Source: a virus. From it: a stretch of DNA of 44,809 bases. The translations under genes and the position numbers were made by a program. Numbering within the stretch: position 1 is the stretch's first letter; each line of letters begins with the position of its first letter. Shown in pieces: positions 1,025 to 37,878 of this stretch. The DNA is taken from positions 1 through 44,809 of IMG/VR virus record IMGVR_UViG_3300025096_003536; one strand, given 5' to 3'. The notes beneath the pieces were generated by a model. That model was not told the DNA's origin. It made no database searches and saw nothing but the letters and a program-made list of their open reading frames with translations.

Positions 1025-1027
1025 ACT

Positions 1028-1663: not shown

Positions 1664-2208
1664 TATTTTATTGCCTCCAAATTTAAGCTCATAAGTTTGC
1701 CACTCTCCTTGTCCAGGTGTGGCAAATATGCTTGGCTATAATCATCAATATGCGAATGTTTGGTTTCGCGCCAGTCGTAATGTTTGATTTCTTTAAAACC
1801 GACACCTTTCAATGCTTTAGACAAGCTTTTAAAATCAAAAATCACTTTATGATAATCATAGATATTTCTTTGGCCACCGACAACGAGCCCCATAATATCT
1901 TCAACATTCTTATTTTCCTGATACCACTGATTGACCGCTTCGAAGTTTGGAACTGATATTCTTATTTTCCCTCCGGACCTTAGTTTAGAATACCAACACT
2001 GAAGGACTTCCTTATACTCATTTCTCCCGAAGTGTTCGAGAACATGACAACCATAAATTAAACTTACAGAATCATTATCGATCTTGTCAAGCTTAGAGAC
2101 ATCGTCGATTAGAACCCCTTCCTTATCACTCAAAATATCAATATTTATAAATCCTGGAATTATTTTCTCGCCGCAGCCTAGATGTAACCTCGTCATGTCG
2201 CCCTCCAT
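1663..2208 (-). CDS. class I SAM-dependent methyltransferase
   Basis: A 181-residue Rossmann-fold methyltransferase. LHLGCGEKIIPGFINIDI at the N-terminus is motif I with the acidic residue after strand 2, followed by IYGCHVLEHF and GGKIRISVPN. It resembles the Methyltransf_11 type common in polysaccharide clusters. The target is unknown, but its position between sulfotransferase and sugar methyltransferase genes suggests glycan decoration. Two starts are possible: ATG at 2208 behind AAGGA, or ATG at 2196 (MTRLHLGCG) behind GGAGGG. The second leaves motif I nearer the usual distance from the N-terminus. Confidence 0.8.
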   Translation of the reverse strand: MEGDMTRLHLGCGEKIIPGFINIDILSDKEGVLIDDVSKLDKIDNDSVSLIYGCHVLEHFGRNEYKEVLQCWYSKLRSGGKIRISVPNFEAVNQWYQENKNVEDIMGLVVGGQRNIYDYHKVIFDFKSLSKALKGVGFKEIKHYDWRETKHSHIDDYSQAYLPHLDKESGKLMSLNLEAIK

Positions 2209-2229
2209 TGAAATCCTTTTACTCCAAAA

Positions 2230-3315: not shown

Positions 3316-3336
3316 TTTATCACCCCGCCCATCGTG

Positions 3337-3417
3337 TCATTTTATTATATCAGCTTGTAGGGTTGTATTAAACACAAAAACAAAATTACCGGGACCACAA
3401 TCAACAATTCCTACCAT
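3337..3417 (-). pseudogene. hisH-like relic (N-terminal 26 codons)
   Basis: ATG at 3417 opens a 26-codon frame reading MVGIVDCGPGNFVFVFNTTL, which matches the opening of HisH, the glutamine amidotransferase subunit of imidazole-glycerol-phosphate synthase (usual start MIGIVDYGMGNL.SV.NAL). It stops at TGA (3339-3337) before any catalytic residue, and I see no continuation in other frames. The start overlaps the PseG-like gene by 17 bases, as an intact operon gene would. HisH-like proteins occur in O-antigen clusters, where they feed ammonia to sugar amidotransferases. I infer a deletion removed the rest. Confidence 0.55.
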
Positions 3418-4423: not shown

Positions 4424-4426
4424 CGT

Positions 4427-5431
4427 TCACTGTAAATATTTCTTGGTAATTCCCGTGTGTTTTTTTACATTTACATTTACTTTTTTTCCTATCACAAAAT
4501 CAATCTCATCGGCATTCATTTCTCCTTCAGGTCGGACCACTAAAATATCTCCGGATTCGATTACATGCCCCCTGGGCAAATCTTTTGAAGCATATAACGA
4601 GCGTCGCGCTCTTTTGCGAGTATATAATTCAGCCTCAGAAAGTTCTTTTTTTTCGTCTCGGAGGGCCTCAAGCGTCATTGTAATATCTTGAATATATTTA
4701 ATTAATTCATCTTTTTCCATCGCATAGGCATGATCTAGCCCCGGCTGGGATTTGTCTTCTGTAAAATGTTTTTCAAACCACGTCGCCCCCATCTGCAGGG
4801 CCAAGCAAGCCGCTATACTATCACCCGTGTGGTCAGAAAATCCAACTTCCACCTCAAATTCATTTTTTAAAGTTTTTATATACTTTAGGTTGGCTTGATC
4901 AAGGGTGGCTGGGTACGCTGACACACAATGCAATAACACAAAATTGTCAAAATTAAGCTTCGACAGCTCATTAACCGTTTTTCTGACATCCTCAATCGTT
5001 GACATTCCCGTCGATATAATCATTTTAATATTACGAGTTGCGACCTCTCTTATCAAGCTTGTATGATTTAGGTCGCAAGAAGCTATTTTTATATATGGTG
5101 GATTAAACTCCATCAATAAATCAAGCCCATCAACATCAAACACAGATGCACTAAACGCAATATCAATTTCCCTACAATGTGCTGCCAATTCAGCATACTC
5201 AAAATCTTCCATTTGGCCGCGCTCTCTGATTTTTAAAACTTCCTCGATATCGTAATGGCCATACTCATAGTTTCCAGGAAGATATAAACCCCATGGATTA
5301 ATAATTTGAAATTTTACAGAATCAGCGCCAGCCACATTTGCAATTCTTGCTAAATTTTTAGCTTTTTGTAAATCCCCATTGTTGTTGGTGCCAGCCTCAG
5401 CTATTATATGAATATCTTCCCTTTTTAACAT
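4427..5431 (-). CDS. NeuB-family nonulosonic acid synthase
   Basis: A 334-residue enzyme with two domains: an aldolase-type barrel (about 1-265) starting IIAEAGTNNNGDL, and a C-terminal antifreeze-like SAF domain (RRSLYASKDLPRGHVI onward). GFSDHTGDSIAACLAL and ATWFEKHFTEDKSQPGLDHA are classic NeuB/PseI/LegI motifs, the latter with metal- and substrate-binding residues. It condenses phosphoenolpyruvate with an N-acylated hexose to make a sialic-acid-like nine-carbon sugar. Which one (sialic, pseudaminic or legionaminic) cannot be decided here. It overlaps the next gene upstream by seven bases. Confidence 0.92.
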   Translation of the reverse strand: MLKREDIHIIAEAGTNNNGDLQKAKNLARIANVAGADSVKFQIINPWGLYLPGNYEYGHYDIEEVLKIRERGQMEDFEYAELAAHCREIDIAFSASVFDVDGLDLLMEFNPPYIKIASCDLNHTSLIREVATRNIKMIISTGMSTIEDVRKTVNELSKLNFDNFVLLHCVSAYPATLDQANLKYIKTLKNEFEVEVGFSDHTGDSIAACLALQMGATWFEKHFTEDKSQPGLDHAYAMEKDELIKYIQDITMTLEALRDEKKELSEAELYTRKRARRSLYASKDLPRGHVIESGDILVVRPEGEMNADEIDFVIGKKVNVNVKKHTGITKKYLQ

Positions 5432-6495
5432 TTTGAATCTATCACCAATCTTGCAAATTTTTCTGAGTTGTATGTCATTGTATTTCTTAAATCAGCCCAC
5501 GTAGATTTACAAAGTTCCTGCTTTATCTCCTTCAGCTCTCCTAGCCTATTGATTCTATCCTCGACCGCTGGCAATAATTCTTGTTTAAGCAAATCAATAT
5601 TCCACTCATCCATTCCCAGGGTATCCACCATACTTATGGCCCTTTGATCATAACTAATTTTAATGGCCGGGACATCATAAGAGATGCAAGGAATAAATGA
5701 ATGTAAGCGAAAAGACACACTCAACCTAGTGCTTCTCAAATATGTTAAGTACGCGTACACATCCTCCGTATACAGGTAATCCATCTCCGCAAACGAAGCT
5801 GCAAACGGTATATCTCTATGATCGTGACATAAAAATTTTACATTCGCATATCCCTTTTTTTTCAACAGCTCAATCATATCAACTAGTTGGTTTCTTAGCT
5901 CATATTGATAATTCACCGGTATACTCATAAGAGAGGGAGTTCGAATAGAAATTAAAGCATCGGTCTTATTTGCTTCCGTTATTGGTACCAAGTGCTGGAG
6001 AATTTCATTAATAAACAAGGTAGGGCAGCCGCCCAGTATGTTGTTACAGCCTATAGAATCTATATATTCTTTTGTTGCCTTGTCTCTTGACAGGGAGATA
6101 TCGGCTCTATTGTTTATCAAAGCAATCTTTTCACTTGGCATTACGTCAGTCCTGTCTACAAAGTCAAGTTTTTGATTATAAATCTTCCCCCTCGACACGC
6201 TAAAAATCATCATAGGTTTTTCTAACGCCGATAAAGCCGTAGAATCAACTTCTAGCTCACCATTTTCGTAAAGATTGCCGCCGCCTACAATAACGCCATC
6301 TCCAAATTGGTTAATTTCATAAACGGTCTGAGCACTTAGCCCCGATTTTCTTTGATTCTCATACTTGCCCGTTGCTGGGAGTGAAATAACATTAATATTT
6401 TGTCCGAAGGCCCTCTTTATAAAATGATTTAGACCAAGGTGAATTACGTCATTACCAATATTGAATCCCTTTGGCCGTATGCAAAAAATATTCAT
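5425..6495 (-). CDS. polysaccharide pyruvyl transferase-family protein
   Basis: A 356-residue protein of the polysaccharide pyruvyl transferase family (CsaB/WcaK type, GT-B-like fold). The N-terminus NIFCIRPKGFNIGNDVIHLG has the N-x-GD motif; DGVIVGGGNLYENGE and the later VSFRLHSFIPCISYDVPAI with its R-x-H are also typical. It would add a pyruvate ketal from phosphoenolpyruvate to a sugar, or act as a related transferase. ATG at 6495 overlaps the previous stop as ATGA, so I prefer it to the in-frame upstream codon at 6510. Confidence 0.8.
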   Translation of the reverse strand: MNIFCIRPKGFNIGNDVIHLGLNHFIKRAFGQNINVISLPATGKYENQRKSGLSAQTVYEINQFGDGVIVGGGNLYENGELEVDSTALSALEKPMMIFSVSRGKIYNQKLDFVDRTDVMPSEKIALINNRADISLSRDKATKEYIDSIGCNNILGGCPTLFINEILQHLVPITEANKTDALISIRTPSLMSIPVNYQYELRNQLVDMIELLKKKGYANVKFLCHDHRDIPFAASFAEMDYLYTEDVYAYLTYLRSTRLSVSFRLHSFIPCISYDVPAIKISYDQRAISMVDTLGMDEWNIDLLKQELLPAVEDRINRLGELKEIKQELCKSTWADLRNTMTYNSEKFARLVIDSKC

Positions 6496-7154
6496 ACAAA
6501 ATCTCTCCACGTTTTTGATGTATCGTTGTCTAGCAGCTTATTGAGTTTTTCTAGATCCAGGGGGAAGTCAACAGTGAACCCCAAATCTTTGTTGAATTCT
6601 ATTTCGCTCTTTATATTTAACAAATTAAATTTATCACTGTTTTGATACAAATAGCTTGTAACATGCTCTCTCTGAATTTCATTCATTTTTGAATAAGCAG
6701 TTTTAAAACTAGATGTTTTGATAATCTCCATCGATATTCCATATGGGTAACTTCTTTCATGAATGTTTGTAATTAAATCGTAATCAGTGTTCTGACATAT
6801 TTGCAGTCCTCTAGAAATAAGTTGCAGATCAATCATTGGTGAATCAGCATTTAGCCTAACAAAGTAATCTGCATTATATTTTAATGCGCAGTTCAGTACT
6901 CTACCAGCAACATCAAGTAAGTCGCCTCGAAAACACTCTACGTTATTTCTATCCGCAATATCATTAATTCTATCATCTGGTGAATTTATACTTGTGGCAA
7001 CAATCACTGGCCACGGGTGGAGTGCTTTTTCCGCCCTGTTTATTACGAATTGCAATAGCGGTATCCCGCACAACAATTGTTCCATTTTTCCCGGAAACCG
7101 CGTAGAGTTCATACGACCAACGACTATGCCAACTATTTTTCTGTTAGACTCCAC
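6492..7154 (-). CDS. CMP-nonulosonate synthetase-like cytidylyltransferase (SpsF/NeuA type)
   Basis: A 220-residue GT-A-like cytidylyltransferase. IVGIVVGRMNSTRFPGKMEQ is the nucleotide loop (R-x-x-S-x-R-x-x-x-K), and FVRLNADSPMID near residue 98 carries the metal-binding Asp. It activates a sugar as its CMP derivative, matching the NeuB-type synthase two genes downstream. The start is GTG, sharing a base with the preceding stop as TAGTG. SpsF-like proteins are less specific than true NeuA, so the sugar is unknown. Confidence 0.83.
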   Translation of the reverse strand: MESNRKIVGIVVGRMNSTRFPGKMEQLLCGIPLLQFVINRAEKALHPWPVIVATSINSPDDRINDIADRNNVECFRGDLLDVAGRVLNCALKYNADYFVRLNADSPMIDLQLISRGLQICQNTDYDLITNIHERSYPYGISMEIIKTSSFKTAYSKMNEIQREHVTSYLYQNSDKFNLLNIKSEIEFNKDLGFTVDFPLDLEKLNKLLDNDTSKTWRDFV

Positions 7155-8005
7155 TATAACACCGTTTCTATTATTTTACAACCAGATTCGACAGTAATTC
7201 CCCCGCTTGATAAGGTGCAGGTTTTTATCCCCGCGTTATTCAAGCTTGTCACATAATAACTAAAATTTCTAATATTTGCCGATGCCGGCGGGAGGTGGCC
7301 GCCCCAAAAACGTTTGCCAACTTCCCTAGAGGTGCCGAACTTGCCCTCAAACCCAGGAACTTTTCCCAGAATATATTCAAACTCTTTATGCACGTTGTGA
7401 GCCTTGGCCCACATGTCGTTGCGATCATAACAATATTCATTCCAGTATTTTCTACTCTCTAAGATGCTTCTTATATTTTTTTGCATCTTGTCTTCCAAAT
7501 CATCATTCCCATTCCAAAAATGAGTATTATATTTTTCTTCAAACCCAATATAAACAATTTGGGCAGCACCCATGATATAGGCGAGATGAGTTGCCAACAG
7601 TAACACGCTGGTGTTGCCCCTAAGCGAAATGTCACTTTCATTTTGTTTTTTATAAAGAGGCGACGATGGAGGATCAGAAGAAAAAATAACAATTTTTTCG
7701 TCATCCCAAAAAAAGTCCTTCATATATGAGAAGGCTCGCCTTTTCTCACCTTTGTTGAAGGCTACGAACAAGGGCAACTCTTTTCGTGTATGTTCAAATA
7801 AATAAACAGCAGGTGATATATGAGCGGAAATAGCATATGATAAGCTATTAATACCTTCATAGGTATAATTCACTCCAATCGTGGTTTTATTTTCTAGAAA
7901 TTCTAACTCATCTCGCGTTAAACTTTTGAGGGAGGGGGCAGACCCCAATATGTAGATGGTCTCCCCGGCGTGCTTATCGTTATAATCATACAGTGTCTTT
8001 TTCAT
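7154..8005 (-). CDS. DUF115/MAF-like glycosyltransferase
   Basis: A 283-residue protein. GETIYILGSAPSLKSLTRDE at residues 14-33 matches the nucleotide-sugar motif of the DUF115 / motility accessory factor (MAF) group, and GAAQIVYIGFEEKYNTHFW is a second conserved block. MAF proteins move pseudaminic or legionaminic acid from CMP to protein or glycan. That role would complete the NeuB and cytidylyltransferase steps encoded nearby. Family placement is moderately sure and the transferase role is inferred. Its ATG overlaps the preceding stop as ATGA. Confidence 0.66.
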   Translation of the reverse strand: MKKTLYDYNDKHAGETIYILGSAPSLKSLTRDELEFLENKTTIGVNYTYEGINSLSYAISAHISPAVYLFEHTRKELPLFVAFNKGEKRRAFSYMKDFFWDDEKIVIFSSDPPSSPLYKKQNESDISLRGNTSVLLLATHLAYIMGAAQIVYIGFEEKYNTHFWNGNDDLEDKMQKNIRSILESRKYWNEYCYDRNDMWAKAHNVHKEFEYILGKVPGFEGKFGTSREVGKRFWGGHLPPASANIRNFSYYVTSLNNAGIKTCTLSSGGITVESGCKIIETVL

Positions 8006-8706
8006 TCGTACCCTCCAAGTCTTTTTAATTCTTCTAGCACTATGGGCACCAAAGATTCAGATAACAAATGAATTGTATCATACCAATAGTTTTTTTCATG
8101 CATGGTACTCGTGATCTTCTCAAAGGTTTCTATATGACGAAACCCCTTCGCCATAGATTGCTCTTTTAAAATTTTATTAAACTTTCCAGTTATTTCCAGC
8201 CCACGTGAAGGGGCCTCACACGAAGGAACAAAACAAGTGCCTTCGTAGCCTCCATCAGTGCCACAAGAAATGTCCATCGTAAATAAATTCTTATATCCGA
8301 GTCTTTTTATTTCCTCATAAACAAGCAAATATCGCTCAACAACACTCTCAATAATTCTATTTACAGATACATTTTGTTTTTCTGCTTGTTTCTTGATGTG
8401 GGCGCGGCAATCAATTTCTCCATAAGATAAACAAACATTAGAATCCAAAGAAACATTTTTTAGCTTTGGCAATAAACTTGTTTGGGCTTTATCACATAGG
8501 GTATGTGCCAAACCGGCGTCTACGCGCCAACAATACAATTCATAGTCTTTGTGCTTATGCCACCGAGTCTGAGGGTGACCATACCTAACATCAAACCAGT
8601 TATACCTTCGATTTGGATTAACTGTCCCATCAGGTAAAAAGTGTTGTCCATCATTCCCTGATATTCCCAGTGCATGACTGTCGCCTATAAAATAAAACTT
8701 TTTCAT
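8002..8706 (-). CDS. SGNH-type esterase/acyltransferase-like protein
   Basis: A 234-residue protein. FIGDSHALG at the N-terminus is block I of SGNH hydrolases with the catalytic Ser; LSYGEIDCRAHI is a variant block III; WYDTIHLLSE contains the C-terminal Asp-x-x-His pair. In glycan operons such proteins add or remove O-acetyl groups. There is no signal peptide, so it acts in the cytoplasm. The gene abuts the GT10 gene and overlaps the MAF-like gene by four bases. Confidence 0.72.
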   Translation of the reverse strand: MKKFYFIGDSHALGISGNDGQHFLPDGTVNPNRRYNWFDVRYGHPQTRWHKHKDYELYCWRVDAGLAHTLCDKAQTSLLPKLKNVSLDSNVCLSYGEIDCRAHIKKQAEKQNVSVNRIIESVVERYLLVYEEIKRLGYKNLFTMDISCGTDGGYEGTCFVPSCEAPSRGLEITGKFNKILKEQSMAKGFRHIETFEKITSTMHEKNYWYDTIHLLSESLVPIVLEELKRLGGYE

Positions 8707-9591
8707 TTATAATACCCTCCCCGTATCAATAATTCTTTTAATGCTTGGCCACCAGTTGTATTGAGTCAGAATCCTAATTCTCGAATCAACAATACCGTTA
8801 ACAACCTCTTCATTAACTGAGTTTGAAATTATTTTCAGAAGGTCTTCACAAGCATCGGGGCTTTTTATATCTAAATTATAAAACGATTGAGACGAAAAAT
8901 ACTTATCAATATCTGGGGCTCCCCAGTAAATCGGCACTGTGTGCGCCATGAGTGCGTCGGTTATCTTCTCTGTAAAGTAGCCATTTAATTGGCCATTTTC
9001 AATACACAGTGCGTATTCATATTGTGATAACCACTCCAATTTTTGTATATCCCCAAACGTAGAAACCCCTTTATAATCGTCCCCCAAGCCCTCGTTCACC
9101 ATTCCCACGCCGTAAACATCTAAAACGCCAGGATGCTTACTACAAAACTCCTTAATAAATCGAAGTCTCTCGTGGTGGCCTGTGCATATTCTTTTGTTGG
9201 ATGTTATAGTACAAATTTTCTTTGTTCTTGGCTTCCACTTTATATCCTGCAATTCTCGATAAGAGAGGGGGAAAGAACACACGCCAAACAAATAAGAGTT
9301 TCCCAAACTATGTTTGAATTTATATGGAGTCGAATACCTATCCCAATTACACCCTCCTATCCAGGGCGGTTCTCTCCCGCATAAAATAATCTTATTTTGA
9401 TTAATTCTCGACATGTCGATATTGGAGTCCGCATCTTCAATCGCAATGAGCCAATCCGCGTCATATGGGTCAGCGACGCCAATTAGATTTTCCCATATAC
9501 CATCGCCGCTTGGGGTTGATCTTTTAAGGCCGCTCAATAATCTTGAACCACTCATCCCCCACGGACAACAAAATGCAACCCTAATCATCAT
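8707..9591 (-). CDS. GT10 alpha-1,3-fucosyltransferase-like protein
   Basis: A 294-residue GT10 protein. The diagnostic block YALCIENGQLNGYFTEKITD at residues 192-211, followed by DALMAHTVPIYWGAPDIDKY, matches the GDP-fucose-binding motif of alpha-1,3-fucosyltransferases (F-E-N-s-x-x-x-x-Y-x-T-E-K). With gmd and fcl in the same operon, GDP-fucose supply is encoded beside it. The acceptor is unknown. The first of two ATG codons overlaps the preceding stop as ATGA. Confidence 0.88.
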   Translation of the reverse strand: MMIRVAFCCPWGMSGSRLLSGLKRSTPSGDGIWENLIGVADPYDADWLIAIEDADSNIDMSRINQNKIILCGREPPWIGGCNWDRYSTPYKFKHSLGNSYLFGVCSFPLSYRELQDIKWKPRTKKICTITSNKRICTGHHERLRFIKEFCSKHPGVLDVYGVGMVNEGLGDDYKGVSTFGDIQKLEWLSQYEYALCIENGQLNGYFTEKITDALMAHTVPIYWGAPDIDKYFSSQSFYNLDIKSPDACEDLLKIISNSVNEEVVNGIVDSRIRILTQYNWWPSIKRIIDTGRVL

Positions 9592-10307
9592 GAACCTCGA
9601 TTATAGGAGGTAGTCAAATCTCGCAGGTGGCGTAAAATCTTTACTCTATCATAGAGATCTTTATTATTATGAATGTAATAATCATGAGATGAATATTTTA
9701 ATTTCTCAATAATATATTTTATATTTTTAGGGATAATATTAAGAAAACAAGATAGATTTCCACGATCAAGTGCACTATCTCCTATCATCAAATAAATGGC
9801 AGACTGAATATCGCGGTGCATCCTCTGATATATCTCGTCTATTTCTACCAACGGGTCCTGGCGGGCCAGAGAATTATACAAAGAGTTGTGAATTGGGTGT
9901 GGTTTCCCGTGCTTCATACACTCACCAGTACTTATCTGAGGATTAACTGCGATTGCGTTCGCACCTAATAATATAGCATGATATATCGACCCGTAGGCGC
10001 CCATCGATGACCCAAAAAAAGTAACATTGGGGGCGCCGAACTTAGAGACGTAAGGCTGCAGTAACTCTTGGTATTCTTTTCCTTGATCCTTCTCTAGATA
10101 CCAATTATTTTTGTTGTTAATAAACAATAAATTAGACTCAGGATTTTTGCTTAAAGTATTAAGCTTAAAAAACTGATGACCTTTATCTCGTATGATACCA
10201 TTTTTATCGTGCAGTCCGTGTGGAGCAAAAGAAACCAACAAAACTTGAGACTCTTCTTTGGGAATAAAAATATAATCTTTGTTTTTATAGACTTTCGTGA
10301 AATTCAT
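9588..10307 (-). CDS. alpha/beta-hydrolase-fold protein
   Basis: A 239-residue cytoplasmic protein with a nucleophile elbow FFGSSMGAYGSIY (G-x-S-x-G), a possible acid in YLMIGDSALDRGN and a His in KYSSHDYYIH, in the order of alpha/beta hydrolases. Such proteins occur in polysaccharide clusters as esterases or acyltransferases. The substrate is unknown. I chose ATG at 10307, which forms ATGA with the preceding stop, over a possible upstream codon at 10340. Confidence 0.65.
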   Translation of the reverse strand: MNFTKVYKNKDYIFIPKEESQVLLVSFAPHGLHDKNGIIRDKGHQFFKLNTLSKNPESNLLFINNKNNWYLEKDQGKEYQELLQPYVSKFGAPNVTFFGSSMGAYGSIYHAILLGANAIAVNPQISTGECMKHGKPHPIHNSLYNSLARQDPLVEIDEIYQRMHRDIQSAIYLMIGDSALDRGNLSCFLNIIPKNIKYIIEKLKYSSHDYYIHNNKDLYDRVKILRHLRDLTTSYNRGS

Positions 10308-10906
10308 TCCTGGCGCCCCTTCAAGTACCAATTTTCCCACACAAAAGCATAATCATAAGTAATCGAATGAGTTTCCTTTAAATTTTGGCGAATTTTATGT
10401 CTCTTTACCAAGGCATCCTCAACAAAAGAATGAAATTGCACTTGGATATTTTTCATTTTAGAGGTTAACTCACTTTCTATGCAATGAGATAGGAGAGGGA
10501 ATTCCCCTCCCTCAATATTAATTTTAATAAGATCTATATTGTCTATGGACAACTCTTGCATAACTTTTCCAATCTCTCGTAGTTGAATAACTTCCATTTT
10601 TTGTGCGCGCTTATAAATACTCGATGCATCACCATCGACACTAATTTCCTGATCCTGGTCTCTTTCTGCAAGACCATAATCACAAACCACAATATTCGGA
10701 TTGTTCGCAAACCGGCTTACAATTGATTCATAAAATTTTTCCACAGGTTCAAAAACATAAACCTTGCAGCCATATCTTTGATTTATTTGAGCAGCAAAAT
10801 CGCCACGGTAACCACCAACATCAAAAACAACGCTATCTTTATTTAAATTATAATTTAATCGGTGAACTAAGTCTCCCTTGTCTGCAAACCATCTTTGAAA
10901 TTCCAT
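10304..10906 (-). CDS. FkbM-family methyltransferase
   Basis: A 200-residue SAM methyltransferase. VVFDVGGYRGDFAAQINQRY is motif I and VYVFEPVEKFYE is the FkbM-type second motif; DLIKINIEGGEFPLL is the strand-4 block (usually LKIDVEGAE). FkbM enzymes O-methylate sugars or small molecules. ATG at 10906 overlaps the preceding stop by one base (TAATG), so I reject the longer start at 10930. Confidence 0.85.
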   Translation of the reverse strand: MEFQRWFADKGDLVHRLNYNLNKDSVVFDVGGYRGDFAAQINQRYGCKVYVFEPVEKFYESIVSRFANNPNIVVCDYGLAERDQDQEISVDGDASSIYKRAQKMEVIQLREIGKVMQELSIDNIDLIKINIEGGEFPLLSHCIESELTSKMKNIQVQFHSFVEDALVKRHKIRQNLKETHSITYDYAFVWENWYLKGRQE

Positions 10907-11688
10907 TATATTATCTCCCACCCTGCACAATAAAGGTCTTTGGTGTTATATGCCACACTGGGGCCAAACCACCGCTGTGGAGCAACCACCACCTTGTCTG
11001 TGTTGGCATTTAACCACGCGGCCCACCAAGAAAAACTACTATTAGCTATAATATTGTGCTTACACATTGACATAAGATACAAATCAATATAATCGGCTTC
11101 ATTCTCAACCACATGAGCCAATGATCCAAATTCGTTTTTGCACCACTCGGCATCATCACTAAACACCACTATATCATACTGATCAGCATCTTTAAACATG
11201 CTTAATGCTTTTTGATAATAGTGGGGAGAGCACGTTGGATGTATGTTTGGGTGATTTGTGTAATCCCCCCTTCGAACATGTATTCCTATTGTTTCTCCTT
11301 CTAGAATATGAGAATATTGTTCATCAATATACTGTTTTATTTCTTCGGTTGGCTCGAACAGGGCTTTAATGTCATCGGCCCTGTGAACAAAATATTTTTC
11401 TGATTGGAAATATCCCAACAAACACATATTTTTTTTGTAAGGGAGCTTCCCGTAATAAAAATTTGGTTCTCGGTATGTACATTCAATTTGTAAATCACGA
11501 GAAAACTCTACTTTTGAAAAAATGTTGGATAAGTACTTGCCACACTTTCTATCAAGAAATTGAGGGGGAAGGTAATGTGTAGTGGTATCAAAAATTGGTT
11601 TGTCGTCGTGGTCTTTAGCCAGAGCCACCACAGTGGCAATCTGAAACATCATGTTCCCCAGGCCGCCCATCAATTGTATTGTAATCAT
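10906..11688 (-). CDS. GT11 alpha-1,2-fucosyltransferase-like protein
   Basis: A 260-residue GT11 protein. The N-terminus has MGGLGNMMFQIA, residues 133-141 contain GIHVRRGDY (the HxRRxD GDP-fucose motif), and the C-terminal block is SSFSWWAAWLN. These are the three classic alpha-1,2-fucosyltransferase motifs. It would add fucose from the GDP-fucose made by gmd and fcl at the end of the operon. Having GT10 and GT11 in one operon suggests a branched, multiply fucosylated glycan. Confidence 0.92.
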   Translation of the reverse strand: MITIQLMGGLGNMMFQIATVVALAKDHDDKPIFDTTTHYLPPQFLDRKCGKYLSNIFSKVEFSRDLQIECTYREPNFYYGKLPYKKNMCLLGYFQSEKYFVHRADDIKALFEPTEEIKQYIDEQYSHILEGETIGIHVRRGDYTNHPNIHPTCSPHYYQKALSMFKDADQYDIVVFSDDAEWCKNEFGSLAHVVENEADYIDLYLMSMCKHNIIANSSFSWWAAWLNANTDKVVVAPQRWFGPSVAYNTKDLYCAGWEII

Positions 11689-11713
11689 TATTCACTTTTT
11701 CCAAATATGGTAT

Positions 11714-12703
11714 TTATCTCCATTCTGGATTATTTAAAAACCACTCTACTGTTTCTTTGAGTCCGTCGTTTAGACTAGTTTTCGGGGCCCACCCCATCTT
11801 TTTCATCTTCTTCCCACACAGGGAGTATCTAAAATCATGTCGTGGGCGCGTCTTTTTTGGATCCACTAGTTTATACTTTAGTGGCTTTCCAACTATTTCA
11901 GCTACCGATTTTGCCAAATCTAAATTATCACTCTCCTGATCGTAGACAATATTATATTTTTCCCCTACGGTGTGGTTAACCATCAAAAACATTACAGCCC
12001 TGCAAACATCTCTTGAATGCAGATAACAACGCCTGCTGGCTTTCGTTAGCTCGGGATTGGAGTGGATCTGGACCGTCTCCCCATTCAAAATCTTCTTGAT
12101 TATTAGAGGAATAAACTTTTCAGGATGTTGTCGAGGTCCGTATACGTTCATCGTGTGAGTTATGATGATTGGCATCATATACGTGTTTTCATACGCCACA
12201 CACAACTCCTCTGCACCAGCTTTTGTTGCGGCGTAGGGATTTCCAGCACGAAACCTGGAATCTTCGTCAAAAACAACTCCTTCGGGGGCAGCTCCAAAGA
12301 CCTCATCTGTGCTAAAATATAAAAACAACTTTAAATCTTTGCAGTGTAGCCTCGCATATTCCAAAAGGTTGCAAGTGCCAACAATGTTGTCCATAACGAA
12401 TTCCATCGGATACAACACGCTTCTATCAACATGGGAACCGGCAGCGAGGTGGAGGATATAATCAACTTTTCCCAATTTATCAATTGTGTAATCATTCGGG
12501 AATGCCTTCAGGTCATGCCACACAACAGTCAAGCGATTTTTCCATTCCGGATTTTGAGAGACCACATCCGCAAGACGGTTTAAGTTCCCAGATACGTCTA
12601 ATCTATCCAACGACACAACTTCAAAATTAGTGTTTTCCAAAAAATATTCTATTAACGCATGGCCAACAAAGCCCGCGCCGCCAGTGATTAATACTCGCTG
12701 CAT
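11714..12703 (-). CDS. NAD-dependent sugar epimerase/4,6-dehydratase (RmlB-like)
   Basis: A 329-residue extended SDR enzyme. VLITGGAGFVGHALIEYF is the NAD-binding motif, YFSTDEVFG the Ser/Thr block typical of dTDP-glucose 4,6-dehydratases, and YAATKAGAEELC the Tyr-x-x-x-Lys pair. It probably makes an NDP-4-keto-6-deoxyhexose or epimerises an NDP-sugar; the precise nucleotide is not clear. ATG at 12703 follows AGGAGG by seven bases and is preferred over 12709. No rmlA, C or D genes are visible. Confidence 0.82.
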   Translation of the reverse strand: MQRVLITGGAGFVGHALIEYFLENTNFEVVSLDRLDVSGNLNRLADVVSQNPEWKNRLTVVWHDLKAFPNDYTIDKLGKVDYILHLAAGSHVDRSVLYPMEFVMDNIVGTCNLLEYARLHCKDLKLFLYFSTDEVFGAAPEGVVFDEDSRFRAGNPYAATKAGAEELCVAYENTYMMPIIITHTMNVYGPRQHPEKFIPLIIKKILNGETVQIHSNPELTKASRRCYLHSRDVCRAVMFLMVNHTVGEKYNIVYDQESDNLDLAKSVAEIVGKPLKYKLVDPKKTRPRHDFRYSLCGKKMKKMGWAPKTSLNDGLKETVEWFLNNPEWR

Positions 12704-12716
12704 TACCAATCCTCCT

Positions 12717-13457
12717 TTAAATCTCTTCTAACAAATTATATTTTTTCATATGGCGGATTCTCATTTCAGAATCTAATAATTTTCGATGATCAACCTTGTC
12801 CTCATTCAGTGGATTGGCCCTGTTATAAATGTGTAAAATCTCTTTTATATAAAAACTTCTGGTCCCAGCCATCTCTAGCATCGGAAACATAAAAGCCAAA
12901 TCCCAGGCTCCGTCACAAAAGCGACCATCTTCTTCTTGAAGATCTTCCTTTTTGATTTTTGACCAAAGCTTATATTTAAACGTTCTCAGATGAGAGGAAC
13001 ACCAAGGCGCTTGTCGAAATGCCTTATTGGCAATGATTTGATCTGAAATCTGCTTTGCAAATTTTCCGCGCTGGCCGCTGGGGTATTCAGCGTAACTACC
13101 GTATGTTATCAAACAGTTGGTCTCCTCATAAACTTGTTTAAGCTTGGATAACACTTGCTTATTCGCAAGCCAATCATCACCATCGAGAGTTACGATAATA
13201 TCTTCAGGAGCAGGGTTTGAAAGCTCTATTCCATCATAAATGTTTTTCAGAGCAAGGGCTTTTTCTTTATTTTCTACGAAAACGAATCTCTCATCCCCTT
13301 CAATCTCTTTTTTGATAATCTTAGCACTATTATCTGTGGAAAGGTCATCTAGAACGATACATTGGAAATTTTCATAATCTTGTACCTTCACACTTCTCAG
13401 GCAAGCAGTTATCCACGCTTCGGCGTTGTAAAGGGGGGTGATGATTTTAAAATGCAT
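12717..13457 (-). CDS. GT2-family glycosyltransferase
   Basis: A 246-residue GT-A-fold transferase. FKIITPLYNAEAWITACLRS and CIVLDDLSTDNSAKI are typical GT2 opening motifs, and IVTLDGDDWL carries the metal-binding D-x-D. A cytoplasmic transferase using an NDP-sugar, probably in glycan chain assembly. It overlaps the upstream GT4-like gene by 11 bases. Confidence 0.9.
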   Translation of the reverse strand: MHFKIITPLYNAEAWITACLRSVKVQDYENFQCIVLDDLSTDNSAKIIKKEIEGDERFVFVENKEKALALKNIYDGIELSNPAPEDIIVTLDGDDWLANKQVLSKLKQVYEETNCLITYGSYAEYPSGQRGKFAKQISDQIIANKAFRQAPWCSSHLRTFKYKLWSKIKKEDLQEEDGRFCDGAWDLAFMFPMLEMAGTRSFYIKEILHIYNRANPLNEDKVDHRKLLDSEMRIRHMKKYNLLEEI

Positions 13458-14283
13458 TTTCTATTACCGTGGGAATTGTATCTCTTTGATCCACAAAATA
13501 TTGAATTAATTCTTTCCCCTTCTTTTTAAACCAGGGCTCTTTTGTTGCTCCGATTAGATTATTAGACATAACAGCCATTCCCATCATCCTGGCTTCAACC
13601 ACCACCCTGGAGAGGGTTTCGGGCGTGAGAGGAAAAAACACTAAATTTTTATTTCTAGATAAATTTTCTAAAAACTTTTGGGGTGGGGCTGGATCTATCA
13701 GATCATATTTCATATTCTTCTTTTTGCAAAATCTAATCGCCCCGAAAGTATTTTTATGAGAAATATTAGAGTTCATTATTGAACTGCAATCTCGTTTTTC
13801 TCTCGTCGATAGTTGTTCTAAAAGTTGAAGAGAATCGGGCGACCACAAGTTTCCACTTAAATTTACAATATTTTCTGTTTTCAAGTTATTTGAAACAATA
13901 TCAGCATGAAATTTTGTTTGACAAACAACAGCAGATGCTTCTTTATAAAATTCAAAATTTATTATATCTTCTTGGGGAGCGATATAGTCTTTATATGCTG
14001 CGGGGTTTCTCCCTCTTAAATATTTGTGATCATGCTCATATACAATATACGGAACCCCACTCTCAATAATTTGGTTACGAAGATTGGGCTTCAAGTTAAT
14101 AAAATTAGATATAATGATATGTTCTGAATTAAGAATATCTTTAGTCTGTACAAGATGACTTTGCCGTGGAACCACATCCCACAAGCGTGAAATTAGCAAG
14201 TCTATGAGTTCTTTATTATTTAATTCTGCGCCACCAGTTATCTGATCAGCAAAAAAGTCATCAATGAAAAGAAGCCTACTCAT
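13447..14283 (-). CDS. GT4-like glycosyltransferase
   Basis: A 278-residue protein that looks like a compact GT-B transferase. FFADQITGGAELNNKELIDL resembles the GGAE-x-x-x acceptor-side motif of GT4 enzymes, and FFPLTPETLSRVVVEARMMG contains the P-E-x-x-x-R-x-x-x-E nucleotide-sugar block. It is shorter than most GT4 proteins (350-400). It overlaps both neighbours by 8-11 bases. Confidence 0.75.
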   Translation of the reverse strand: MSRLLFIDDFFADQITGGAELNNKELIDLLISRLWDVVPRQSHLVQTKDILNSEHIIISNFINLKPNLRNQIIESGVPYIVYEHDHKYLRGRNPAAYKDYIAPQEDIINFEFYKEASAVVCQTKFHADIVSNNLKTENIVNLSGNLWSPDSLQLLEQLSTREKRDCSSIMNSNISHKNTFGAIRFCKKKNMKYDLIDPAPPQKFLENLSRNKNLVFFPLTPETLSRVVVEARMMGMAVMSNNLIGATKEPWFKKKGKELIQYFVDQRDTIPTVIENAF

Positions 14284-15556
14284 GAACTTCTACATTTAAT
14301 TCGTTGAGCCAGCCTTGTACATTAAAATCTTCTTCTGGGGCGTACTCCTCTAGGTGCCCCACAAATTGTCCCCACATTTTTCCTTCGGTGAATTTACTAC
14401 GTATATATTCTTGCAAATCCTTCGCTCGATTTTCATAAATTCTATATTTTTTATGAACATCGCGCAGCTTCATTTTGAAACTTCCCTGGTCAGCATAGGC
14501 CCACTGAGAATCCTCCTGTAAAACACCGGCCCAGACAGCATTTTTTTGGATAACATTCACAGTGAACTCGACTTCAGCGAATTTAGCCACCATCTGCTTC
14601 TTTCTTTTGCCTTTTATTTTTTCTGGGGCGTATAGAAAATCAGCTTGGCCGCCCCACGGATGCGTAACAATAGGCTTCCCGTATCCAGCCATCTCAAACA
14701 TCGGCAAACCAAACCCTTCTCCGTGAGCAATATTTATTAATGCTTTAATTTTTGGATGTTGATACAGCGCAGACATCTCATCATCTTTCAGATACCCGTG
14801 CAAGAGATGAACTGCACATTTTCTTTCAGAATATTTTGCGTCTGCTAATAAATTTTTAATACTATTTCTTGTGGTGTTCGCATCAATATAAGAATTGCTT
14901 GCTGAGCTGACCTTTAACAGCAGACCAACCTCTTGATCGTAGAACTCTTCTATAAACCAACGGATTGTATTCTCGACATTCTTTCGAGGACTAATTTGGG
15001 CTACAACAAGAAAATTAAAATCATATTTTAAATCAAAATCAATATTTGAAGGAATGTACGGTCTAAACGGATAATTTACAACTTCAACCGGACCTTTAGC
15101 ACCCATGTCCCTAACTTCGCCTGTTTCGGGGTTTGTGGCTTTATAGACAGTATTCACAAAAGCATGTTTTGAAAAATTCGAAACAACAATGATTTTATCT
15201 ACAAGATAAGATTTTTGAACCCACTCTGGAGATATTTTTGTTGTTTCAATTCCGGCTGTGCAGCCAATATTAATTGGAGCCAACTTTTCCCATTCATTCG
15301 GGATGGTGACTTGTAAAGAAATGTCAAACGTTCCCTTCTGCTGGCGATGGTGAACAGTCTTTAACAAAACAGAATCAATCCATTGTCGTTCTTCTGTATC
15401 TTCCCACAACCAACTTGTCTGGCCCCAGCTCAAATTTTCAAGATAAATATCAAATAAGTCTTCTCGACTTTTTAGTGCTCGCAATACAAATCTTGCATGT
15501 TCCCCATACCCGCTTTGACTTAAGGCAGGGCCCCTTATTAGTGCTTTTAATCTCAT
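14276..15556 (-). CDS. GT4-family glycosyltransferase
   Basis: A 426-residue GT-B transferase. It opens LKALIRGPALSQSGYGEHAR; FNFLVVAQISPRKNVENTIR begins the second domain, and INIAHGEGFGLPMFEMAGYG contains the E-G-F-G-L-P-x-x-E nucleotide-sugar motif. I chose ATG at 15556, which forms ATGA with the upstream stop. The next gene upstream is a second GT4 protein, so the two may add successive sugars. Confidence 0.88.
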   Translation of the reverse strand: MRLKALIRGPALSQSGYGEHARFVLRALKSREDLFDIYLENLSWGQTSWLWEDTEERQWIDSVLLKTVHHRQQKGTFDISLQVTIPNEWEKLAPINIGCTAGIETTKISPEWVQKSYLVDKIIVVSNFSKHAFVNTVYKATNPETGEVRDMGAKGPVEVVNYPFRPYIPSNIDFDLKYDFNFLVVAQISPRKNVENTIRWFIEEFYDQEVGLLLKVSSASNSYIDANTTRNSIKNLLADAKYSERKCAVHLLHGYLKDDEMSALYQHPKIKALINIAHGEGFGLPMFEMAGYGKPIVTHPWGGQADFLYAPEKIKGKRKKQMVAKFAEVEFTVNVIQKNAVWAGVLQEDSQWAYADQGSFKMKLRDVHKKYRIYENRAKDLQEYIRSKFTEGKMWGQFVGHLEEYAPEEDFNVQGWLNELNVEVHE

Positions 15557-16815
15557 AGCTCTTCCAATCTCCATGATTTATAATTCTTTCGAGAATCCCA
15601 AGACCCATATTTTTCATATACATCTGTTAAAACCCTATCCCATTCGGTTTGGTAGCGTTCGAAACTATAATTTTTTATAACATGTTCTCTACCTTGCGTT
15701 CCCATCTCGTGTCGCTCTTTTTCGGAGAGATTATAAAACTTTTCCAGAGTATCAACGAACTCATCGCCATTAATCCTATCTTCATAAATCCAGGGAATAT
15801 CTTGTGATCCAATTATTGCACGAGAAGAAGGGCTAATACCAAACCCAAACCAATTTTCTCCATCAGTCGCCTGCTCTTGAAGGCCCCCTGTCATGTTAAC
15901 AATGATGGGTATTTCACAAGCAAGAGATTCAAGAGTCGCGAGCCCGAAGCCTTCTGCATCAGATATATTAATTGTGCAATCAGACATATTATACAATAAA
16001 GATAATCCTTCGGCTGAGATTTTATCTTTTGAAAACATCACTTGCCCCTGGTTTAGCCCAAGTTCATTAACTATGGCCTCCAAATCTTGTCCATGCATAT
16101 CCTTTGGGTCGGTGTGCATAAGCAAAGCTGCCTTGTCGTGTCCAATTCGATCTAAAAAGTCCTTAAACCAAAAAATCAAAGTTCCCGATTGTTTGCGCCT
16201 CGCGTTTCGATTGTTCCAGAAAAATATCATCTTTTCTGAGTTGTTGAACTTTTTTAAATTTTCATTCTTGAATTCGGCAATTGTTTCAGAATCTACTTTC
16301 TTAAAAATTTCTGTGTTGACTGCGTGAGGAAGGTGAATCACTTCAGCCTCTTTCGCAACAATGTTTACAATCTCGTCGGTAAGCTTAGAAATAGTTACTA
16401 TTACATCCGTTGAATCGTATGCCAAGCGATTAAATTTCGGAGGAGGATAATTATCCCAGACATGATAATAAACCATGGGAACCAACGGACGAATCTCGTC
16501 CTCCATTTTCCAAAGCCATCCAAAAAATCGTGGATCAGTCATAAACCACAATATATCAGGTTTCTCATTTCTTAAAACCGAACGGACAATCTCTGCATTT
16601 CCATACCCATCAATTGGAAAAATTGTCCAGTCATCACCCCACTCTTCGGTTTTCATCGGCTGATAGTTCTGGTGTTTGACCGCCCCTCCGAGAGATACAA
16701 CTTGGAACCGGCCTGTCTTTAACAGGCCCTCAATCATATATTTTGTTTGAGTTCCGACGCCGGAAGGAGAGAGCGGATGGTCTGAAATCGTGAGGATCTT
16801 AATTTTTTTACTCAT
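15553..16815 (-). CDS. GT4-family glycosyltransferase
   Basis: A 420-residue GT-B transferase. ISDHPLSPSGVGTQTKYMIE is the N-terminal acceptor-side loop, MIFFWNNRNARRKQSGTLIF opens domain 2, and INISDAEGFGLATLESLACE is the E-G-F-G-L-x-x-x-E motif. It starts at ATG 16815, seven bases after the nuclease gene, making it the first glycan gene in transcription order. It is probably co-transcribed with phoH2 and the nuclease. Confidence 0.88.
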   Translation of the reverse strand: MSKKIKILTISDHPLSPSGVGTQTKYMIEGLLKTGRFQVVSLGGAVKHQNYQPMKTEEWGDDWTIFPIDGYGNAEIVRSVLRNEKPDILWFMTDPRFFGWLWKMEDEIRPLVPMVYYHVWDNYPPPKFNRLAYDSTDVIVTISKLTDEIVNIVAKEAEVIHLPHAVNTEIFKKVDSETIAEFKNENLKKFNNSEKMIFFWNNRNARRKQSGTLIFWFKDFLDRIGHDKAALLMHTDPKDMHGQDLEAIVNELGLNQGQVMFSKDKISAEGLSLLYNMSDCTINISDAEGFGLATLESLACEIPIIVNMTGGLQEQATDGENWFGFGISPSSRAIIGSQDIPWIYEDRINGDEFVDTLEKFYNLSEKERHEMGTQGREHVIKNYSFERYQTEWDRVLTDVYEKYGSWDSRKNYKSWRLEEL

Positions 16816-22638: not shown

Positions 22639-23061
22639 TTACCACTCTTCTGGCTGTCCAACCCAATCGTTAAAAGAATCTTGTCCTCCGCGAATGCTCC
22701 AATCAGAATCAATCGTCAATTTAGAAGAAATGCCGCCTCTTGGATTACAGACTATCACAATCCTTAACCTTGCCGGGTCATAAACCTTTATCAAGTCATC
22801 ATAAATAACATTAATGATTCTTTCATATGAAAAAATTTGATTGCGAAATGCAAAGAAATATTCCTTAAGCGATTTAAGTTCAATGACCTTATCGGATGGA
22901 TAAAAGGTGAGATATAATTGAGCGAAATCAGGTTGTTCTCTCACTCCCTCGAATGTTAATTCAGGGATTTTCATTTTTATTTCATAAGCATCACGCGTGG
23001 GATTTGGGATTGATCTTAATAGATGTCTATTCTTTTCCCAGTTTTGATTCTTATTTTTCAT
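22639..23061 (-). CDS. QueF-fold protein lacking the nitrile-reductase Cys
   Basis: A 140-residue T-fold protein related to the single-domain NADPH-dependent preQ0 reductase QueF. It keeps QPDF (43-46, with the conserved Asp) and ELKSLKEY (61-68, the E-x-K-S-x-K QueF signature), plus PRGGIS. But the catalytic Cys position (usually S-L-C-P before QPDF) is occupied by FEGVRE, and the active-site His-Glu pair reads Tyr-Glu (SYER). It should therefore not reduce a nitrile and may do another 7-deazaguanine reaction. ATG at 23061 begins just after the tmRNA 3' end with no ribosome site, so its translation is odd. Confidence 0.8.
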   Translation of the reverse strand: MKNKNQNWEKNRHLLRSIPNPTRDAYEIKMKIPELTFEGVREQPDFAQLYLTFYPSDKVIELKSLKEYFFAFRNQIFSYERIINVIYDDLIKVYDPARLRIVIVCNPRGGISSKLTIDSDWSIRGGQDSFNDWVGQPEEW

Positions 23062-23063
23062 AA

Positions 23064-23339
23064 TGGAGATGGTGGGAGTCGAACCCACGTCCTGCTCTGC
23101 TTCAACTATTCTTTCATTCACAAGGTTAGTTGGTTTTAGGCTCCAACAAGCACAATCAATTAAAAATCAACATCAATACAGTGTTGGTTAGCAAGGCCAC
23201 TGCAAGCCCCGGCAATAACTAAGCTGCCATTGCGTATTCGAAGTAATCTTCGTCAATTAATATTTTTGAACTTTTTAAAGTCTGTTCAAACTTCCTTGCA
23301 AGAATACCCTCCACAACCAGTCGATACCATTTCATCCCC
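23064..23339 (-). ncRNA. ssrA: tmRNA
   Basis: A complete single-chain tmRNA of 276 nt. The 5' end GGGGATGAAATGG (from 23339) pairs with the 3' end CATCTCC (23071-23065) in a seven-base acceptor stem with one G-U pair. The T arm GGTTCGACTCC is canonical and the discriminator is A; CCA is not encoded. The central open frame ends DEDYFEYAMAA then TAG at 23221-23219, a typical degradation tag with an Ala-Ala end; the resume codon is not certain. It rescues stalled ribosomes and tags proteins for proteolysis. Phage tmRNAs are known but uncommon. Confidence 0.95.
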
Positions 23340-31746: not shown

Positions 31747-32898
31747 TTAGTTAAGACCACTCATAGAGAGGATTGCGATGAGACCAGGAACATTCTTTCG
31801 TATATAGATACCAGAGAAAAGAGTTTCCGTGCGGCCCCCCACATAAGAGATGGCAGCATCAAGGTGTTTGCTTACTTCTGGGTCGTTCGCCATTTCAGGT
31901 GAAATTACGAAGAGCATTGTCCCAGTTTTTGGCTTGCCGGAAGGTTTTGAACAAGGGGACTTCTTCAAACAGTTTTGAAATATTGTTGCTCCAAGGTTTC
32001 CAACTCTTGGATTAGGAATAACTGTGGAGCCAATAAAAGTTCTTTTCGGAGTTCGCAAACACCTTTCAAGATCCTTCGAGTCAAAGGACTGGATTGGAGA
32101 CTGTTCACTAGCAAGCTTTAAAATTTGATGAAATAACTTTGCGAAAGCTCTGTTGGCGGTCGGGAGAAGATCAAGCACACCAACCTTCCCGCGAAGGAAC
32201 TGCATTTGTCTTTCGTTGTCGAGAATAATGTGTGGATATTTAATAATATCATTAACGAGAGATAAAGCATTTTTATTAATTGTTGAGTTCAAGCTTTCTT
32301 GAGCTGAGGGCCAAGTAACAATATATACAACATCTCCTTCGCCTTGAACAGATTGTAAATAGCGGTGAAAAACATTGTGGAGAACGGGACAGGAAGAGCC
32401 AGTTCCACCCCCACCACCAGCAAGAACAAAAATCCAATCCACCTTTCCAAGCTTCGTTCGGAGAGCATCTTCGACCACGGCACTGTTGCTTTGGAGCACG
32501 CTCTTACCAAAAGAAATATTCTTTGCAACCCCGTCAGCATCGGGAATTAGAATAATATGTTTAGGATCGACGCCTTCGGGTTGATCCTTCAGGGTCGTGT
32601 TAATCAAAAGTGTTTTGTTGAACCCGAGATCAAGAAAAGCCTTTGCAAGCTTACCTCCGCCTCCACCAAACCCAATAAAAGCACAATTTAAAGCAGAGAT
32701 AGCCGTGTTGTCGGGCAGCTGCTCCTCATGAGCCACATCTGCTTCGACATCATAGTGTTCTACAAAATCAAAATCGTCATTGGCTGAATCGTATTCATCT
32801 TCCTCTTCCTGAAATTCAGCAAAAACATCTTCTGCAACGGGTGGCGCTATTCCAATCGGAGGTTTCTCAACTTCGTTATTATCATTTTCTTCAGTCAT
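31747..32898 (-). CDS. tubulin/FtsZ-superfamily GTPase
   Basis: A 383-residue protein. After an acidic N-terminal extension (1-65), CAFIGFGGGGGKLAKAFLDL (73-92) starts the Rossmann-like GTPase, and GGGGGTGSS (161-169) is the tubulin signature G-G-G-T-G-S/T. NKNALSLVNDII may hold the nucleotide-contacting Asn. The C-terminal half is short and lacks an obvious FtsZ tail. Some jumbo phages encode tubulins (PhuZ) that centre replication compartments; this divergent member may form filaments, but polymerisation cannot be read from sequence. A CTATTTA motif lies 38 bases upstream. Confidence 0.86.
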   Translation of the reverse strand: MTEENDNNEVEKPPIGIAPPVAEDVFAEFQEEEDEYDSANDDFDFVEHYDVEADVAHEEQLPDNTAISALNCAFIGFGGGGGKLAKAFLDLGFNKTLLINTTLKDQPEGVDPKHIILIPDADGVAKNISFGKSVLQSNSAVVEDALRTKLGKVDWIFVLAGGGGGTGSSCPVLHNVFHRYLQSVQGEGDVVYIVTWPSAQESLNSTINKNALSLVNDIIKYPHIILDNERQMQFLRGKVGVLDLLPTANRAFAKLFHQILKLASEQSPIQSFDSKDLERCLRTPKRTFIGSTVIPNPRVGNLGATIFQNCLKKSPCSKPSGKPKTGTMLFVISPEMANDPEVSKHLDAAISYVGGRTETLFSGIYIRKNVPGLIAILSMSGLN

Positions 32899-37616: not shown

Positions 37617-37644
37617 TTTACAAATTTTTTTTATGACTTATAAT
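37617..37644 (+). promoter_or_regulatory. sigma70-like promoter of the structured RNA
   Basis: TTTACA, 16 bases, TATAAT. Transcription should begin near 37651, giving an RNA that runs to the terminator at 37853-37877. Confidence 0.7.
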
Positions 37645-37650
37645 TAAAGC

Positions 37651-37878
37651 ACAATGAAGTTACCCCGCAGGTAGAAAGAGTGGCGGAAACAGACGCAGGG
37701 TTCAACTGGTGACATGCATATACGACCCGGACCAAGTAATAAGACAACCAGGAATACTTGGTCACTTGCAGGAACAAAATCCTGCCTCTTTCACGCGCGG
37801 GTGGGCGGCATCAAAGTCGCACGGCAGGTTGGGGTGCCTGCCACCCCCCTATTCTAGCGAAGCGAGACGATTTTTTTC
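37651..37878 (+). ncRNA. candidate novel structured RNA, about 225 nt
   Basis: A transcript bounded by a promoter and a terminator with dense perfect pairing. An outer stem is CCCGC (37664-37668) with GCGGG (37797-37801), then GAAAGAG (37674-37680) with CTCTTTC (37786-37792). Inside are GACCAAGTA/TACTTGGTC (37730-37738 / 37755-37763), GCAGGA/TCCTGC (37768-37773 / 37780-37785) and GGGTT/GACCC (37698-37702 / 37724-37728). After the outer stem, GGCAGG/CCTGCC (37823-37828 / 37837-37842) competes with GGGGTG/CACCCC (37831-37836 / 37842-37847). I match it to no known class. A frame at 37709-37912 crosses it but its protein looks unconvincing. Confidence 0.72.
37853..37877 (+). terminator. terminator of the structured RNA
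   Basis: TCTAGC and GCGAGA form a short stem (one A-G mismatch) around GAA, followed by seven T at 37871-37877. Confidence 0.55.

What the first reader, a model, noticed from the sequence alone, without database searches (positions are those of the whole stretch)
37617..37878. Probable new structured RNA with its own promoter and terminator
A good promoter (TTTACA-16-TATAAT), at least five perfect stems including a long-range closing helix, two mutually exclusive hairpins near the 3' end (GGCAGG/CCTGCC versus GGGGTG/CACCCC) and a T-run terminator define an RNA of about 225 nt. I cannot match it to tRNA, tmRNA, 6S, RNase P or a known riboswitch. It lies just before a tandem array of small paralogues.
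Basis: partly seen in the sequence, partly recalled or inferred. Interest (0 to 1): 0.85.

Follow-up and report, generated by a model that had tools for sequence, protein, structure and literature searches.

The report
Phage tRNA-like RNA carrying swappable cargo
The stretch encodes a phage RNA built on a tRNA frame whose codon-reading arm is replaced by other RNA; it belongs to an apparently undescribed family found in over a hundred phages, in which that inner segment is swapped like a cassette between otherwise near-identical copies.

Summary
Positions 37674-37792 form a tRNA(Leu)-like core: a 7-bp acceptor stem, U8-G9, a tRNA-Leu D-arm, and a T-arm abutting the acceptor. In place of the anticodon and variable arms lies a 70-nt insert. 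It is not a tRNA gene: ARAGORN and Rfam find nothing, and there is no anticodon arm. The acceptor, T and D stems covary strongly. A covariance model built without the window finds exactly this stretch as its only match (58.6 bits, E=6e-14); a model from the second set also finds only this stretch (E=1.6e-4). Members lie in Lactobacillus, Listeria, Enterococcus, Leuconostoc and Bacillus phages, often in tRNA arrays, beside ROOL RNA, or ahead of terminase genes. In relatives the insert behaves as an exchangeable cassette: near-identical flanks hold unrelated inserts, and identical inserts sit in different scaffolds. Function is unknown; I favour a natural tRNA scaffold for variable RNA cargo. 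The proposed 3' switch and terminator are not supported.

The parts
37617..37644 (+). sigma-70-type promoter TTTACA-16-TATAAT
   Evidence: 11 of 12 consensus matches
37664..37668 (+). 5' strand of outer helix (CCCGC) extending the acceptor stem
   Evidence: pairs with 37797-37801; a comparable flank extension is seen in L058, not general
37674..37680 (+). acceptor stem 5' strand GAAAGAG
   Evidence: 7/7 pairs with 37786-37792; all 7 pairs covary in relatives
37681..37696 (+). U8-G9 and D-arm TG-GCGGAAACAGACGC; matches the tRNA-Leu D-arm but lacks G18G19
   Evidence: sequence; D-stem covaries in the second set
37697..37766 (+). insert (payload) replacing the anticodon and variable arms, 70 nt
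   Evidence: no canonical anticodon arm in the family; exchangeable in relatives
37698..37728 (+). stem GGGTT/GACCC in the insert, loop 21 nt (too large for an anticodon loop)
   Evidence: single sequence, no covariation test possible
37730..37763 (+). 9-bp hairpin GACCAAGTA/TACTTGGTC in the insert (variable-arm position)
   Evidence: single sequence
37767..37767 (+). U48 (expected partner of A15 in a Levitt pair), the base before the T-stem
   Evidence: T in 28 of 28 D-anchored members although not imposed by the search
37768..37785 (+). T-arm GCAGG-AACAAAAT-CCTGC, directly abutting the acceptor
   Evidence: 5/5 T-stem pairs covary in relatives
37786..37792 (+). acceptor stem 3' strand CTCTTTC, followed by A73; no encoded CCA
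37797..37801 (+). 3' strand of outer helix (GCGGG)
37823..37847 (+). two mutually exclusive hairpins (GGCAGG/CCTGCC; GGGGTG/CACCCC)
   Evidence: sequence only; outside the family core; unsupported by relatives
37871..37877 (+). run of seven T
   Evidence: not called a terminator by the scan

Best explanation
37674-37792 encodes a member of a phage RNA family that I find in no database searched: non-decoding tRNA(Leu)-like RNAs. Shown: an acceptor stem, U8-G9, a tRNA-Leu D-arm, A15/U48 and a T-arm abutting the acceptor are kept, with covariation; the anticodon/variable region is replaced by an insert of about 20-200 nt; in relatives the insert is exchanged as a unit between otherwise near-identical loci. 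Inferred: the core folds like tRNA, is trimmed and stabilised by host tRNA enzymes (RNase P, 3' processing, perhaps CCA addition), and serves as a natural scaffold that presents a variable RNA cargo. The exchange pattern suggests that the cargo carries the specificity (for instance against a host or rival-phage factor) and is under diversifying selection. For the window's own copy the cassette exchange is inferred from the family; it has no close relative.
For: D-arm-anchored scan: of 88 core hits, 23 have acceptor + T-arm at score >=11.7 against 0.15 expected, and 15 perfect ones against 0 of 1,760 shuffles. Covariation 12/12 pairs, score 0.965 against 0.229. T-arm-anchored scan: at least 120 contigs, nearly all with the same upstream D-arm and matching acceptor; covariation 12/16 pairs, D-stem included. 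Models without the window find it as sole match: R2 58.6 bits, 6e-14; R3 26.8 bits, 1.6e-4. Both D-loop types occur as paralogues in one phage, with the same acceptor GGAGCGG in G039. Non-decoding: anticodon arm in 9/139 (7.5 by chance) against 113/114 bacterial tRNA-Leu. Cassette exchange: upstream/insert/downstream identity 100/44/92%, 100/47/93%, 95/51/93% (random inserts: median 48%), and identical inserts in different scaffolds. Elbow: GG in 103/111 D-loops of T-anchored members, whose T-loop is nearly always TGCAAAT; of GG-less members 27/28 lack that T-loop. Not in Rfam.
Against: No expression data for any member. Highly transcribed regions near the tRNA genes of Listeria phage cka15 (PMC12282133) could not be tied to it: the stretch fetched has no model match. 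The window's insert has no close relative, so its structure and exchange are untested. R3 scores the window (26.8 bits) no higher than ordinary tRNA-Leu (24-29 bits), so its place in the family rests on R2 and the D-anchored set. Encoded CCA is rare and A73 variable, so tRNA-like 3' maturation is uncertain. The contribution of the cargo to function is inferred only.
Confidence: 0.6

Rival explanations
1. tRNA(Leu) decoy: the phage RNA soaks up a host factor that acts on tRNA (a tRNA-cutting or tRNA-modifying defence toxin, LeuRS, or a processing enzyme); the insert is mostly filler that removes the vulnerable anticodon loop.
For: The D-arm equals the tRNA-Leu D-arm; U48 and a D/T-loop association are kept; the anticodon arm is consistently missing; several members lie in phage tRNA arrays.
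Against: Filler does not explain whole-insert replacement between loci with 92-100% identical flanks, or reuse of one insert in different scaffolds; A73 and CCA, needed by LeuRS, are not conserved.
Confidence: 0.2
2. cis-acting processing or leader element: a tRNA-like structure in a longer transcript that guides RNase P/Z cleavage or regulates the downstream late/packaging operon; no free RNA function.
For: In Sha1 and Brochothrix phage BtpYZU01 it lies between a late regulator and the terminase genes, and in Leuconostoc Ln-9 next to an HNH gene; in LP65 and P100 it lies between tRNA genes.
Against: Positions differ widely among phages and no shared neighbour protein was found in the D-anchored set; three tandem copies with different inserts in about 0.75 kb (G044) are hard to read as leaders.
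Confidence: 0.15
3. Decaying tRNA gene with an insertion, without function.
For: No canonical anticodon arm, and the D- or T-loop consensus is partly lost.
Against: Compensatory changes in acceptor, T and D stems across unrelated phages, a D/T-loop association, multiple copies per phage and a good promoter in the window.
Confidence: 0.03

Closest known systems
Bacterial/phage tRNA-Leu (RF00005)
   Same: Acceptor length, U8-G9, D-arm TGGCGGAA...AGACGC, A15/U48, T-arm abutting the acceptor; canonical tRNA-Leu scores 24-47 bits with the family models
   Different: No anticodon arm; inserts up to about 200 nt; window D-loop lacks G18G19; not called by ARAGORN or Rfam
T4 species 1 RNA (rnaC), a small stable phage RNA of unknown role
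   Same: Encoded beside T4 tRNAs; a T-arm CCGGGTTCGAATCCCGG followed by a partly pairing acceptor-like stem around a long centre (my reading); role unknown (PMC3014915, PMC9697503)
   Different: Lacks the D-arm motif; no match to the family models
Bacterial Y RNAs (YrlA), tRNA mimics bound to Ro60
   Same: Non-decoding tRNA-like fold, reported from bacteria and phages (cited in PMC12282133)
   Different: Ro60/TROVE found in 1 of 42 member records; no match to an Rfam Y RNA family; arms here in normal tRNA order
tmRNA (RF00023)
   Same: Acceptor and T-arm closing a long non-tRNA insert
   Different: No Rfam tmRNA match; the window has its own tmRNA at 23061-23339
ROOL RNA (RF03087) and GOLLD
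   Same: Phage RNAs of unknown function near tRNA islands (PMC12286853); family members lie beside or near ROOL in L338, L313 and LP65
   Different: Much larger, unrelated fold; neighbours, not the same family

Membership tests
tRNA (RF00005) | Rfam tRNA match at gathering score | tested here: not met
tRNA (RF00005) | Anticodon arm with 7-nt loop at the tRNA position | tested here: not met
   Family 9/139 (7.5 expected by chance) against 113/114 tRNA-Leu controls; window loop is 21 nt
tRNA (RF00005) | Acceptor + T-arm + D-arm in tRNA spacing | tested here: met
Phage non-decoding tRNA-Leu-like family (this work) | 7-bp acceptor + UGGCGGAA-N-AGACGC + insert + U48 + T-arm abutting the acceptor | tested here: met
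   leave-one-out model 58.6 bits; separately anchored model, sole match
Phage non-decoding tRNA-Leu-like family (this work) | Exchangeable insert | tested here: inconclusive
   Shown for relatives; the window copy has no close relative
Bacterial Y RNA (YrlA) | Encoded near Ro60/TROVE | tested here: not met
   No TROVE in the window; 1 of 42 member records (many records are fragments)
Bacterial Y RNA (YrlA) | Match to an Rfam Y RNA family | tested here: not met
tmRNA (RF00023) | Covariance-model match and tag reading frame | tested here: not met
T4 species 1 RNA (rnaC) | Match of T4 rnaC to the family model | tested here: not met
   (T4 region L259 without a match)
Stable processed phage RNA | Discrete transcript in infected cells | not testable with these tools
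   needs Northern blot or RNA-seq

The most novel reading that the evidence does not exclude
Phages use a natural tRNA scaffold as a carrier for interchangeable RNA cargo: recombination at the conserved D- and T-arms swaps cassettes between phages, giving an RNA-based, rapidly diversifying weapon or counter-defence, a natural counterpart of the engineered 'tRNA scaffold'.
Probability: 0.4. Interest if true: 0.95.

Novelty: new variant of a known kind. Interest (0 to 1): 0.8.

Why it matters
An RNA family present in well-studied phages (LP65, Sha1, P100, phi3Ts) appears to have gone largely unannotated because it looks like a broken tRNA. It is testable at once in Bacillus subtilis (phi3Ts) and lactobacilli. 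Cassette exchange between constant flanks is a usual mark of an arms race, so the inserts may point to an unknown phage-host or phage-phage conflict; they could also explain unassigned small RNAs in phage transcriptomes. Whatever the function, it gives phage annotators a new RNA model.

Tried and rejected
Rfam at gathering score and low thresholds: no family. ARAGORN with introns calls the core a tRNA-Leu only at very loose settings that give 1,206 calls in the loci fetched by then, so it was discarded as evidence. First core pattern was off by one base and found nothing (corrected). Relatives by neighbouring protein or tubulin gene: no copy in 26 related records; the one hit there is an ordinary tRNA-Leu. 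Genome-contig scan flooded by normal tRNA-Leu, useful only as control. blastn against isolated phages and plasmids with GG-less members: nothing, a weak test. Exact window T-arm in viral contigs: only unrelated sequence without the architecture. L044, L046, L048, L057, L173, L234, L249 set aside as chance or probably coding; L062 and L244 left out as doubtful. Ro60 link and antisense target of the insert in the window (longest match 10 nt, shuffles 9-16): negative. Expression through Listeria phage cka15 data: no model match in the stretch fetched. Synechococcus metaG-MbCM1 hit is a normal tRNA-Leu. Shared neighbour genes in the D-anchored set: none.

Full report
WHAT IS THERE. The window is a 44.8-kb IMG/VR virus record with a tubulin/FtsZ-like protein, a NeuB-like synthase, a glutamine synthetase and a tmRNA. 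On the plus strand a promoter (TTTACA-16-TATAAT, 37617-37644, 11/12) precedes the RNA. The core, 37674-37792, reads: acceptor GAAAGAG - UG - D-arm GCGGAAACAGACGC - 70-nt insert - U48 - T-arm GCAGG AACAAAAU CCUGC - acceptor CUCUUUC - A. A further helix CCCGC/GCGGG encloses it. The D-arm is that of bacterial tRNA-Leu (UGGCGGAA(U)UGG(U)AGACGC) without G18G19. Rfam finds no plausible family, even at E<=10; ARAGORN finds no tRNA. Folding energy alone is unremarkable (z -1.76).

FAMILY, FIRST ANCHOR. Scanning viral contigs for the D-arm motif without GG gave 88 distinct hits. Asking each for an acceptor strand and a directly abutting T-hairpin, neither imposed by the pattern, gave 23 hits at score >=11.7 where shuffled downstream sequence predicts 0.15, and 15 perfect ones against none in 1,760 shuffles. 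In 28 aligned members all 7 acceptor pairs and all 5 T-stem pairs show compensatory changes (98.3% paired; covariation score 0.965 against 0.229 +- 0.025 shuffled). The members were chosen partly for pairing, so one search is the cleaner test. The base before the T-stem, position 48, is U in 28 of 28.

FAMILY, SECOND ANCHOR. A model from these (R1) found further copies in the same phages, now with G18G19 and T-loop TGCAAAT: G039 has one of each type with the same acceptor GGAGCGG, G044 has three in tandem, G064 four. In 25 of these the acceptor and D-stem covary as well. A model from this second set alone (R3), which contains no window sequence, finds in the window exactly 37674-37792 and nothing else (E 1.6e-4). 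The first set without the window (R2) gives 58.6 bits, E 6e-14, again the only match. Caveat: ordinary tRNA-Leu scores up to 44-47 bits with R1/R2 and 24-29 with R3, so the models alone do not separate the family from tRNA-Leu; the missing anticodon arm does.

NOT A DECODING tRNA. A canonical anticodon arm at the tRNA position occurs in 9 of 139 inserts (7.5 expected by shuffling), against 113 of 114 bacterial tRNA-Leu. D-loop and T-loop go together: GG is in 103 of 111 D-loops of the T-anchored members, whose T-loop is nearly always TGCAAAT, while 27 of 28 GG-less members have other T-loops, as expected if the elbow contact matters. Six inserts hold an internal canonical T-arm (0.13 expected), so some cargo may itself be tRNA-derived.

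THE INSERT IS A CASSETTE. Among 125 parsed T-anchored members there are 100 insert clusters and 75 acceptors. Pairs with near-identical surroundings hold unrelated inserts: L373/L396 (upstream 100%, downstream 92%, insert 44%), L402/Leuconostoc Ln-9 (100, 93, 47), L321/L328 (95, 93, 51); random inserts share a median of 48%. Conversely L402 and L395 share the whole insert and both arms but differ in acceptor and flanks, as do L301 and L335 apart from a few T-arm bases. In the alignments of the three exchanged pairs the breakpoints lie at ...UAGACG | insert | CAUG.... This is replacement, not drift.

WHERE. Lactobacillus Sha1 (after RinA, before HNH-terS-terL), Brochothrix BtpYZU01 (before terS/terL), Leuconostoc Ln-9 (beside HNH), Lactobacillus LP65 (three copies and a ROOL RNA in its tRNA island), Enterococcus phiSHEF16 (tRNA island), Listeria P100 (before tRNA-Asn), Bacillus phi3Ts. 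Only 3 of 199 sampled genomes of one bacterial phylum (that of G069) match strongly (strict filters), in keeping with a phage element. Ro60 is found in 1 of 42 member records, which argues against bacterial Y RNAs.

HOW IT MIGHT WORK. Shown: tRNA-like frame, lack of decoding arm, insert exchange in relatives. Inferred: tRNA-type processing and stability, and that the cargo carries specificity. Swapping of a central cassette between constant flanks is typical of diversifying selection, so a conflict role (defence, counter-defence, phage-phage competition) is my first guess; decoy and leader roles remain open. The 3' alternative hairpins and T-run of the window lie outside the conserved core and have no comparative support.

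KNOWN OR NEW. Paper searches (open-access papers only) gave no description. LP65 entries labelled 'tRNA-OTHER' are a reminder that such genes can be filed as tRNA pseudogenes; I did not establish that these entries are members. Nearest analogues are the T4 species 1 RNA, Y RNAs and tmRNA; none matches. I grade it a new variant of a known kind (phage tRNA-like RNA), with a categorically new reading (scaffold plus swappable cargo) left open.

Noticed in passing
   Followed up: partly
window 31747-32898 (-): Tubulin/FtsZ-like GTPase (Pfam E 3e-6), with 40 relatives in viral contigs and none in the isolated-phage collection.
   Followed up: partly
window 1-16815 (-): Long run of sugar and polysaccharide genes, including NeuB and probable glycosyltransferases, in a phage record.
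   Followed up: no
L294 (G044:C1:5900-6850): Three tRNA-like RNAs in tandem within about 0.75 kb, each with a different insert.
   Followed up: partly
L338:667-1384 and L423:5000-8861: Family members directly beside or near ROOL RNA in phage RNA islands; a functional link is possible.
   Followed up: no
L315, L339, L347, L352, L392, L408: Inserts that contain a second, canonical T-arm (6 of 139 against 0.13 expected), as if pieces of real tRNAs were captured as cargo.
   Followed up: partly
L259:1409-1547 (T4 rnaC, - strand): T4 species 1 RNA shows a canonical T-arm followed by an acceptor-like strand that pairs with its 5' end except for two U-U mismatches.
   Followed up: partly
L443 (G050): A TROVE/Ro60-domain protein in a 125-kb virus record that also has tRNA-Leu genes.
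   Followed up: no
L432 (Listeria phage P100 tRNA array): tRNAs annotated on the + strand are called on the - strand by ARAGORN, probably a strand error in the record.
   Followed up: no
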